A stretch of DNA of 51,519 nucleotides from Bacteroidaceae bacterium (GTDB lineage: Bacteria; Bacteroidota; Bacteroidia; Bacteroidales; Bacteroidaceae), in contig JAIKZS010000037.1 of NCBI GenBank assembly GCA_024682035.1, positions 1 through 51,519 on the forward strand. The letters are read 5' to 3'. The notes under the pieces are model-generated. The model searched no databases. It had not been told where the DNA came from and was given only the letters and a program-made list of their open reading frames with translations. Positions 34,969-38,846 of this stretch are shown piece by piece (position 1 is the stretch's first letter; each line of letters begins with the position of its first letter). The position numbers and the translations under genes are program-made.

Positions 34969-35305
34969 CCGGAGTGCGTGACGCGTGACAAGTGACATTT
35001 GGTTTTTGTACTTTGTCAGGAATAAGGAAGAGATAATAAGCTTATTTATATTAATAATATTATAATTATAATATTATTAATATAAATAAAATTTTTAATC
35101 TTAATATTTATTACTCATTACAGGAAACCATCTTCTTATTTTAAACTAAAATCCATATTTTTGCAACAAATCTTAAATTTCAAACTTTTCCAGGAAGCAT
35201 CATCCTATTCGGAGAAAAGGCACCTTACTGGTTATCCAAAACAGTGAAAGACATAATAACATTATCCAAGATGTCACTTGTCACACGTCACGCGTCACTC
35301 TCCGG
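34969..35305. mobile_element. MITE-like non-coding element with imperfect terminal inverted repeats and central palindrome
   Basis: Arms 34969-34998 and 35271-35305; 48-bp perfect palindrome 35042-35089; no internal ORF. Confidence 0.5.
35042..35089. repeat. 48-bp perfect A/T-only palindrome
   Basis: TTATTTATATTAATAATATTATAATTATAATATTATTAATATAAATAA equals its reverse complement. Confidence 0.97.
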
Positions 35306-36757: not shown

Positions 36758-36851
36758 CTTTTATGAATAAAAATTGTTTGCAAAGGGCAAAATTAAAATA
36801 ATTTCTTGTAATTTTGCAGAACGGAATATAATAACTAAAAAAAATACTAAC

Positions 36852-37538
36852 ATGAAAACTGTATTAAACATTGTTTTGGCTGCCGTCGCAGTTTTTCTGC
36901 TTTACATTTGCTATGAAAGCGTGATGGGGCCTGTCAGATTCGAAGAAGAAAAAGGTATTAGAGACAAAGCTGTTCAGGCTCGTTTACTGGACATCCGTAA
37001 GGCGCAAACTGAGTATAGTAATACCCACGACCGTCAGTACACCAACAACTTTGACTCTTTGATTCATTTCGTTAAGAACCAGAAGCTCCCGCTGGTGTTC
37101 AAGAAGGGTGTGTTGTCTGATGCACAGCTTGAAAGCGGTCTGACAGAAGAAAAAGCAATGGCTATTATCAACAAGGCAAAGAAGACCGGTAAGTATGATG
37201 AAGTTAATAAGAATGGTTTGGAGAACTTCTCTCGTGACACTACTTGGGTAGCTGTTATTGATACTATCTTCCCTAAGGGCTTCAATGCTGACTCTTTGCG
37301 TTATGTGCCTTTTGGCAATGGCATTCAGTTTGAAATGGATACTTTGACCCAGATTGCTCGTTCTGGCGCTCCTATCTGTCTGTTGGAAGTAAAGACTCCA
37401 TACGAGGCATATCTTGGCGACCTTGACAAGCAGGAAATCATTAACCTGAAAGACCAGCAGGTACAGCTGAACAAGTACTGCGGTCTGAAGATTGGTGACC
37501 TGGAGACTGCTAATAACAATGCAGGTAACTGGGAGTAA
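36852..37538 (+). CDS. Uncharacterised single-TM-anchored protein
   Basis: N-terminal TM MKTVLNIVLAAVAVFLLYICY; track ORF over-extended, ATG at 36852; promoter-like TAATTTTG at 36809-36816. Confidence 0.7.
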   Translation: MKTVLNIVLAAVAVFLLYICYESVMGPVRFEEEKGIRDKAVQARLLDIRKAQTEYSNTHDRQYTNNFDSLIHFVKNQKLPLVFKKGVLSDAQLESGLTEEKAMAIINKAKKTGKYDEVNKNGLENFSRDTTWVAVIDTIFPKGFNADSLRYVPFGNGIQFEMDTLTQIARSGAPICLLEVKTPYEAYLGDLDKQEIINLKDQQVQLNKYCGLKIGDLETANNNAGNWE

Positions 37539-38286
37539 TTCTCATCAGTATATATTATCCATCCGCCTTTCAGCGGATGGATTTTATTTTGCCCTCCTTA
37601 ACCAAAAAGTTAAGGAGAATGATGATTCATCCACTTATAATTATAAGGTGGATGAATCATTATCGTTTACGGCCAACTTAAAGCAAGCTATTGAAGAACT
37701 GGAATGGCTGAGCTATAAATACAAAGCTGTGAACATTGAGCTGGCTACGCAGCGTTTCACACTGGTACCTCTTGACTTCTTTGAAGAAGAACATGCAGAA
37801 ACACTGTTCTACCAAAACTTCCAGAAGGTGGACAACGAGGTGGTGGAATATAATGTGCTGCAAAAGAACAATGCGGTGGTGGTGTATGGCATTGACAAGG
37901 TGCTGCTGGCACTGATATACCACACTTTTCCAGAAGCTCATCTGAAAGTACAGGCCGCAGCACTGATAGATAGACTGAGCCTGCTGAACCGCAAGACGGA
38001 ACAGAAGCAGATGCTGTGTGTTGTGGGCAAGGACTGCATGACAATTGTGGTGATGGAAGGGCACCACCTATTGTATGGCAACAGCTTTCATTGCACACAT
38101 ACTACTGACAGGATGTATTATGCGTTGTATGTTTGGAAATTGCTAGGACTTGACCAAACTGCTGACGAAATGTTGCTGGCTTGTAATACAACGGATAGCG
38201 AAGAAATAAAGATGGAGCTGGAGAAGTATATTAGCAACATTAAGCCTGTTGACAATTGCTTTGACTTAGAGACTGCTGAGCTATGA
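37519..38286 (+). CDS. DUF3822-like protein
   Basis: N-terminal LSIRLSADGFYFAL and overall pattern resemble DUF3822; overlaps previous gene by 20 nt; start inferred. Confidence 0.65.
   Translation: MQVTGSNSHQYILSIRLSADGFYFALLNQKVKENDDSSTYNYKVDESLSFTANLKQAIEELEWLSYKYKAVNIELATQRFTLVPLDFFEEEHAETLFYQNFQKVDNEVVEYNVLQKNNAVVVYGIDKVLLALIYHTFPEAHLKVQAAALIDRLSLLNRKTEQKQMLCVVGKDCMTIVVMEGHHLLYGNSFHCTHTTDRMYYALYVWKLLGLDQTADEMLLACNTTDSEEIKMELEKYISNIKPVDNCFDLETAEL
37557..37590 (+). terminator. Terminator-like hairpin located inside a coding region
   Basis: ATCCATCCGC-CTTTCA-GCGGATGGAT (perfect 10-bp stem) followed by TTTATTTT. Confidence 0.65.
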
Positions 38287-38846
38287 GGATTGTAAGTGGC
38301 AAATATAAAGGCAGACGTTTTGAGGTGCCACATTCATTCAAAGCACGCCCTACCACCGATTTCGCGAAAGAAAATCTTTTCAACATCCTTACGAATCTCA
38401 TAGATTTTGAGAATTCTGTGCTGGCACTCGACCTTTTTGCCGGTACGGGCAGCATTACGCTGGAACTGCTGTCAAGGGGATGTGAGCAAGTGGTGAGTGT
38501 GGAGAAAGACCGTGACCACTATGCTTTTATCTGCAAGATACTGAAGGAGCTGGGTGACAAGGCTTGTATGCCTGTGAAGGCAGATGTGTTCAAATATGTT
38601 GAACGCAGCAAGCAGTCGTTCGACCTGATTTTTGCCGACCCTCCTTATGCTTTGCCTAACCTTGACACACTACCCGATCTTATTTTAGGAAATCATTTGC
38701 TGAAAGAAAAAGGATTGTTCATTTTGGAACATGGCAAGGACTACAATTTCGAACAGCATCCACACTTCATGCAACATCGCAGTTATGGAGCTGTGAATTT
38801 CAGTTTCTTCCAACCAACCATCAGAGCAACGGAGACATCAATCTGA
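38283..38846 (+). CDS. rsmD: 16S rRNA (guanine(966)-N(2))-methyltransferase RsmD
   Basis: MRIVSGKYKGRRFEVP, RPTTDFAKENLFNIL, LDLFAGTGSITLELLSRG, DLIFADPPYA. Confidence 0.95.
   Translation: MRIVSGKYKGRRFEVPHSFKARPTTDFAKENLFNILTNLIDFENSVLALDLFAGTGSITLELLSRGCEQVVSVEKDRDHYAFICKILKELGDKACMPVKADVFKYVERSKQSFDLIFADPPYALPNLDTLPDLILGNHLLKEKGLFILEHGKDYNFEQHPHFMQHRSYGAVNFSFFQPTIRATETSI

What the first reader, a model, noticed from the sequence alone, without database searches (positions are those of the whole stretch)
37557..37660. Terminator embedded in the start of a coding region, followed by two more perfect hairpins
Seen: ATCCATCCGC-cttTCA-GCGGATGGAT then TTTATTTT (37557-37590), CTCCTTAAC-caaaaa-GTTAAGGAG (37594-37617), and ATGATTCATCCAC-N13-GTGGATGAATCAT (37622-37660, 13-bp stem). 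All lie inside the ORF encoding LSIRLSADGFYFALLNQKVKENDDSSTYNYKVDESLSF. The first is a textbook intrinsic terminator 18 nt after the upstream stop, yet encodes the family-typical SIRLSxDGF segment. Ribosomes moving through by translational coupling would melt it, so expression of the DUF3822-like gene and rsmD could depend on translation of the upstream gene (a built-in antitermination switch). Three tandem hairpins in 104 nt of coding DNA are hard to explain by codon choice alone.
Basis: partly seen in the sequence, partly recalled or inferred. Interest (0 to 1): 0.66.

Follow-up and report, generated by a model that had tools for sequence, protein, structure and literature searches.

The report
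Conserved terminator inside a downstream gene
Across many gut and marine Bacteroidota, what looks like the transcription stop signal of one gene is written inside the first codons of the next gene; it is conserved as a base-paired RNA hairpin, even at the cost of amino-acid changes, and is absent where the upstream gene is absent.

Summary
In detail: three hairpins in 104 nt at the start of a DUF3822 gene (BT_3980 family). The first (37557-37582) has a 10-bp stem followed by TTTATTTT.

Hairpin 1 is not an accident of codon choice. In 113 Bacteroidales DUF3822 loci, sampled by protein and preceded by the same upstream gene (protein usually ending GNWE), the codons form 8.44 of 9 stem pairs; synonymous shuffles give 5.50±0.11. 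In 32 loci without the upstream gene none exceeds 7. Fifteen of those genomes, checked by profile, lack the gene entirely. Eight of ten pairs show two-sided compensatory change, some altering amino acids (Arg-Thr, Arg-Ala, Arg-Pro, Gln-Leu).

Best explanation: an intrinsic terminator of the upstream gene embedded in the downstream CDS, so that only read-through transcripts express DUF3822 and probably rsmD. Termination itself was not measured. The translation-coupled antitermination switch is possible but untested; published E. coli work suggests only a modest effect (~10%) at this position.

Hairpins 2 and 3 are confined to a six-species clade and less well kept.

The parts
36809..36816 (+). 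TAATTTTG, match to the Bacteroides -7 promoter motif TAnnTTTG, 35 nt before the start codon of the upstream (NWE) gene
   Evidence: the motif is common by chance (52 found, 40 expected in the window), so candidate only
36852..37538 (+). Upstream gene, 228-aa protein with one predicted membrane helix, ending NNNAGNWE ('NWE gene'; BT_3981 by inference); no Pfam or NCBIfam family
37519..38286 (+). DUF3822 gene (BT_3980 family, actin-like ATPase fold); start ATG 37519 overlaps the end of the NWE gene
37557..37582 (+). Hairpin 1: conserved terminator stem-loop, 10-bp stem, 6-nt loop
37583..37590 (+). T-tract TTTATTTT after hairpin 1 (codons of the D-G-F-Y-F segment); T content kept above the synonymous expectation
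37594..37617 (+). Hairpin 2, 9-bp stem, clade-specific, often with a mismatch in relatives
37619..37663 (+). Hairpin 3, 16-bp stem with one mismatch, 13-nt loop, clade-specific
38283..38846 (+). rsmD (Cons_hypoth95), 16S rRNA methyltransferase family, start overlaps the DUF3822 stop

Best explanation
Hairpin 1 plus its T-tract is the intrinsic (Rho-independent) terminator of the upstream NWE gene, placed inside codons ~13-24 of the downstream DUF3822 gene. RNA polymerase starts at the NWE promoter, the trailing ribosome stops at the NWE stop codon 18 nt before the stem, the hairpin forms, and a large share of transcripts ends around 37583-37592. The DUF3822 start codon lies before the hairpin, so every DUF3822 message must read through it; DUF3822 and, unless it has its own promoter, rsmD are expressed only from the read-through fraction. 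This would keep NWE output high relative to the downstream genes, with ribosome loading on DUF3822 a possible modulator. Shown: the hairpin, the T-tract, covariation beyond the protein code, and association with the upstream gene. Inferred: termination in vivo, its efficiency, the expression ratio, and any regulation.
For: Stem and T-tract match the terminator model. In 113 loci with the NWE gene, 8.44 of 9 codon-encoded pairs form against 5.50+-0.11 under synonymous shuffling, and T content after the stem is 7.44 of 9 against 5.92+-0.085; in 32 loci without the gene, 4.81 pairs (null 4.14) and none above seven. On 96 distinct sequences 92.6% of cells pair (27-45% with slid partners) and 8 of 10 pairs have two-sided changes; covariation score reached by 0 of 500 shuffles. 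Fifteen genomes without the adjacent gene lack it altogether by profile search, while 6 of 6 controls have it. L093 keeps the same peptide without the gene, with codons that break the stem. In L152 and L172 the embedded hairpin is lost and an ordinary hairpin plus T-tract stands 31-34 nt after the NWE stop. A terminator in the first 100 bp of a coding region works efficiently in E. coli (PMC4824070). No + strand TAnnTTTG between 36911 and 38127.
Against: No 3'-end or expression data were available. At least ten sampled loci with the NWE gene have neither hairpin 1 nor another recognised terminator nearby (e.g. L071, L076, L163, L169). The phylogenetically corrected test of joint loss is underpowered: four independent pairs on supported branches, about 2.5 concordant, none opposed. 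The stem is moderate (6 G-C pairs of 10).
Confidence: 0.77

Rival explanations
1. Translation-gated antitermination switch: a ribosome that starts DUF3822 by coupling from the upstream stop codon melts the hairpin, so DUF3822-rsmD expression senses translation capacity, as in the E. coli frd/ampC attenuator (recalled from memory).
For: DUF3822 starts before the hairpin and near or overlapping the upstream stop codon; an ATG lies upstream of the hairpin in 209 of 231 loci; rsmD is a ribosome-modification gene. The terminator has stayed inside the CDS over deep divergence.
Against: In E. coli, translation of an ORF whose AUG lay 30 bp before a terminator lowered its efficiency by only ~10% (PMC4824070). 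No alternative antiterminator structure was found, though none was sought systematically. No regulation data.
Confidence: 0.22
2. The hairpin mainly protects the 3' end of the upstream mRNA from exonucleases, or makes a processed 3' end, rather than terminating transcription.
For: It would also explain loss together with the upstream gene and conservation of the stem.
Against: The T-tract is conserved beyond the amino-acid requirement, and the two replacement hairpins also carry T-tracts.
Confidence: 0.1
3. The hairpin is a by-product of the conserved peptide LSIRLSxDGFSF and ordinary codon usage.
For: The peptide S-I-R..D-G is conserved and can encode complementary codons; synonymous shuffles already give 5.5 of 9 pairs.
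Against: Observed pairing is about 27 standard deviations above the synonymous null; the same peptide without the upstream gene breaks the stem (L093); amino acids change in step with the partner codon.
Confidence: 0.02
4. The palindrome is a DNA site for a protein, not an RNA structure.
For: The core is a near-perfect palindrome.
Against: G-U pairs are accepted, the sequence itself varies (CCATCCG, CCATTCAG, CCATCTTGA, CCCTTCAA), the T-tract is on one side only, and the exact pattern is single-copy in all genus genomes but one.
Confidence: 0.04

Closest known systems
Intrinsic (Rho-independent) transcription terminator
   Same: G+C-containing stem, short loop, T-tract, shortly after a stop codon
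   Different: Lies within the first codons of the next gene in the same direction and constrains that protein's sequence; conserved with covariation across Bacteroidales and in Flavobacteriaceae
Synthetic terminator in the first 100 bp of a coding region (tR2 in plasmid W48, E. coli; PMC4824070)
   Same: Terminator about 30 bp after the AUG of the second ORF of an operon; terminated mRNA has a start codon without a stop
   Different: An artificial construct; here the layout is natural and deeply conserved
frd terminator / ampC attenuator of E. coli (from memory; not read here)
   Same: Terminator of an upstream transcription unit that also limits read-through into the downstream gene, with possible ribosome control
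   Different: There it lies in the leader before ampC; here it is inside the downstream CDS
ORF-internal RNA 3' ends mapped in E. coli (PMC7815308)
   Same: RNA 3' ends inside coding sequences, with regulatory potential
   Different: The passages read describe processing, Rho or single cases found by RNA-seq, and no covarying terminator kept in a downstream gene's first codons across a class

Membership tests
Intrinsic terminator | Stable stem-loop with G-C pairs | tested here: met
   10 bp, 6 G-C pairs, -16.6 kcal/mol
Intrinsic terminator | T-tract directly after the stem | tested here: met
   TTTATTTT in the window; T content above the synonymous null across loci
Intrinsic terminator | Stem maintained by compensatory change | tested here: met
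   8 of 10 pairs with two-sided changes
Intrinsic terminator | Follows an upstream gene and tracks its presence | tested here: met
   0 of 32 loci without the gene keep the stem; gene absent from 15 of 15 such genomes checked by profile
Intrinsic terminator | RNA 3' ends or release of RNA polymerase at the T-tract | not testable with these tools
   No RNA data held
Translation-controlled attenuator | Translation start upstream of and near the terminator | tested here: met
   ATG 38 nt before the stem in the window; an ATG upstream of the hairpin in 209 of 231 loci
Translation-controlled attenuator | Mutually exclusive antiterminator structure or control codons | not tested
   The local folds show only the terminator hairpin, but no systematic search for alternative pairings or control codons was made
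Translation-controlled attenuator | Read-through changes with translation | not testable with these tools
   Needs reporter experiments
Rfam RNA family or riboswitch | Match above a family's gathering score | tested here: not met
   Only sub-threshold chance matches

The most novel reading that the evidence does not exclude
A natural translation-sensing switch kept across Bacteroidia: when ribosomes load promptly on the PilM-like DUF3822 gene the in-gene terminator is suppressed, tying output of DUF3822 and the 16S rRNA methyltransferase RsmD to translation capacity.
Probability: 0.22. Interest if true: 0.8.

Novelty: new variant of a known kind. Interest (0 to 1): 0.62.

Why it matters
Intrinsic terminators are usually pictured between genes and as fast-evolving. 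Here a terminator-like element is superimposed on a protein-coding sequence, conserved by compensatory changes in many Bacteroidales families and in Flavobacteriaceae, and some compensations change the protein (Arg-Thr, Arg-Ala, Arg-Pro, Gln-Leu pairs). It shows two codes negotiating over the same bases, offers natural gene-loss controls, and predicts a specific 3' end that existing or new Bacteroides RNA-end data could test. It also implies that terminated upstream mRNAs carry a start codon with no stop, a possible routine load for ribosome rescue.

Tried and rejected
Rfam search gave no family above threshold. A single-protein search of genome contigs found nothing, probably because the peptide patterns were too specific; the DNA pattern worked. 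The fold search for the upstream protein found no PDB match, so I make no claim that it is a pilin or PilN despite its long N-terminal helix. The tree test for correlated loss was underpowered. No paper in the library mentions DUF3822 or BT_3980 or BT_3981; one lists BT_3979 as a putative methyltransferase. A pure codon-choice explanation was rejected and a DNA-palindrome explanation made unlikely. Hairpins 2 and 3 were considered part of the device and rejected because they are not kept outside six species.

Full report
WHAT IS THERE. The window is contig 3 of a draft 2.0-Mb genome. At 36.8-38.8 kb three genes lie head to tail: an unnamed 228-aa gene whose protein ends in NNNAGNWE (36852-37538, here 'NWE gene'), a DUF3822 gene (37519-38286; PF12864) and rsmD (38283-38846; PF03602). 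The DUF3822 start overlaps the NWE end, and rsmD overlaps the DUF3822 end. DUF3822 is homologous to B. thetaiotaomicron BT_3980 (PDB 3HRG, actin-like ATPase fold); BT_3979 is listed as a putative methyltransferase (PMC8931616), so the NWE gene should be BT_3981 (inference).

OBSERVATION. The three hairpins are as described. Three of the 13 perfect hairpins (stem >=9) in 51.5 kb lie in these 104 nt; Markov sequences give 2-5 in the whole window. With the protein held fixed, synonymous shuffles put hairpin 1 at z = -4.7 and the hairpin 2+3 region at z = -5.8.

HAIRPIN 1 IN RELATIVES. Loci were gathered by protein similarity, not by hairpin, from the genus, family and order. In Bacteroides relatives whose proteins are only about 40-48% identical, the DNA TTATCCATCCGTCTTAGTACGGATGGATTTTCTTTTTC is nearly invariant, while neighbouring codons drift. 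The exact pattern TCCATCCGNCTNNNNNCGGATGGA is found in 107 of 160 genus genomes, in single copy except in G135; the reversed-pattern control gives none. In other families the stem persists with different bases: CCATTCAG/CTGGATGG, CCATCCTG/CAGGATGG, CCATCTTGA/TCAAGATGG, CCATCGGGC/GCCCGATGG, CCCTTCA/TGAAGGG.

QUANTITATIVE TESTS. I aligned DUF3822 N-termini by protein and read the nine codon-encoded pairs between S-I-R and x-D-G. With the NWE gene upstream (113 loci) the mean is 8.44 of 9 pairs, against 5.50±0.11 when codons are redrawn synonymously; 89 loci have all nine. Without it (32 loci) the mean is 4.81 (null 4.14±0.19) and none exceeds seven. T content in the three codons after the stem is 7.44 of 9 (null 5.92±0.085) with the gene and 5.62 (null 5.28) without. 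On 96 distinct sequences, 92.6% of cells are paired (27-45% with slid partners), 8 of 10 pairs show two-sided changes, and the covariation score 0.368 is reached by 0 of 500 shuffles. Shuffles do not keep relatedness, so the slid-partner control and the synonymous null matter more. Pairing reaches through to amino acids: Arg CGT faces Thr ACG (28), Arg CGC faces Ala GCG (22), Gln CAG faces Leu CTG (11), Arg CGG faces Pro CCG (7).

LINK TO THE UPSTREAM GENE. Using an HMM for the NWE protein, a scan for perfect-stem terminators found one in 94 of 109 loci where the gene ends <160 nt upstream of the match, and in two more where it ends 185 and 368 nt upstream. Fifteen genomes lacking the adjacent gene have no copy anywhere by profile search, whereas six of six control genomes do (a single-sequence search of 20 genomes, agrees but had no positive control). 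L093 encodes LSIRLSTDGFSF without the gene, with codons that break the stem. In L152 and L172 the gene is present, the embedded hairpin is gone, and an ordinary hairpin plus T-tract stands 31-34 nt after the gene's stop codon. Absence of the gene is spread over many families; 21 changes of gene presence are counted on a quick tree, but only four independent pairs sit on supported branches (about 2.5 concordant, none opposed), so the phylogenetic test alone is not significant.

RANGE. Every one reads S-I-x..DGFSF in frame; 116 match a DUF3822 HMM (the other is truncated at its locus end), and 113 have the NWE homolog upstream (three of the other four lie at a locus end). They include Bacteroidales and Flavobacteriaceae such as Polaribacter, Tenacibaculum, Lutibacter and Leeuwenhoekiella, where the stem is CCAA/TTGG and the peptide SIQFSLDGFSF. 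In a thin sample of 396 genomes of the phylum the exact pattern occurs in 6, none outside Bacteroides and one other family of the class. I therefore claim Bacteroidales plus Flavobacteriaceae, not the whole phylum.

MECHANISM. Shown: terminator-like anatomy, RNA-level selection, T-tract selection, and association with the upstream gene. Inferred: that transcripts of the NWE gene end here and that DUF3822 (and probably rsmD) live on read-through. The + strand has no Bacteroides-type -7 motif (TAnnTTTG) between 36911 and 38127, while TAATTTTG stands 35 nt before the NWE start codon, consistent with one promoter for the NWE gene and DUF3822. In E. coli, terminators in the first 100 bp of a coding region work efficiently; one placed 30 bp after an AUG lost only ~10% of its efficiency through translation (PMC4824070). 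Terminated RNAs would carry the DUF3822 start codon without a stop, a situation that in that study lowered upstream expression.

HAIRPINS 2 AND 3. Among six species (L003-L008), hairpin 2 is 88.9% paired and hairpin 3 is 90.6% paired with four two-sided changes. Synonymous-shuffle z-scores of the region are -5.8 in the window and -4.1, -1.6, -3.2, -2.1, -3.8 in the relatives; other loci with the gene average -0.44. They are above chance but clade-specific; my best guess is extra mRNA structure that helps hold the read-through message or slow the ribosome after the terminator, with low confidence.

VERDICT. A real, strongly conserved embedded terminator, undescribed as far as the searched library shows. 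The kind of element is known; its position inside the next gene and its depth of conservation are the novelty.

Noticed in passing
L192, L233, L284, L292 (DUF3822 starts): In four flavobacterial-type loci the DUF3822 frame has no ATG, GTG or TTG between the preceding in-frame stop and the hairpin; in L292 it follows the NWE stop codon directly in frame. A non-standard start codon or stop-codon read-through are possibilities.
   Followed up: no
window 37519-38286 and 36852-37538: The closest folds to DUF3822 after 3HRG are PilM, FtsA and, lower, PulL-type proteins, and the NWE protein is a single-helix membrane protein with an alpha/beta domain, so the two could be a PilM-PilN-like pair. The NWE model has no PDB fold match.
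   Followed up: partly
window 36787-36817: A 9-bp inverted repeat carries a TAnnTTTG match on each strand (36788-36795 minus, 36809-36816 plus) between the divergent helicase and NWE genes, like a symmetric pair of divergent promoters.
   Followed up: no
window 38128-38135: TATGTTTG on the + strand inside DUF3822, about 150 nt before rsmD, could be a separate rsmD promoter.
   Followed up: no
window 35042-35089: A 22-bp perfect A+T-only palindrome with a 4-nt loop downstream of the helicase gene.
   Followed up: no
G135:C18:2869-2892 and G135:C29:65537-65560: The only genus genome with two copies of the hairpin pattern, on different contigs; possibly a mixed assembly.
   Followed up: no
A1 alignment (NWE proteins), C-terminus: The C-terminal GNW motif (GNWE in Bacteroidales, GNWP plus a tail in Flavobacteriaceae) is invariant, although the model gives this end very low confidence.
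   Followed up: no
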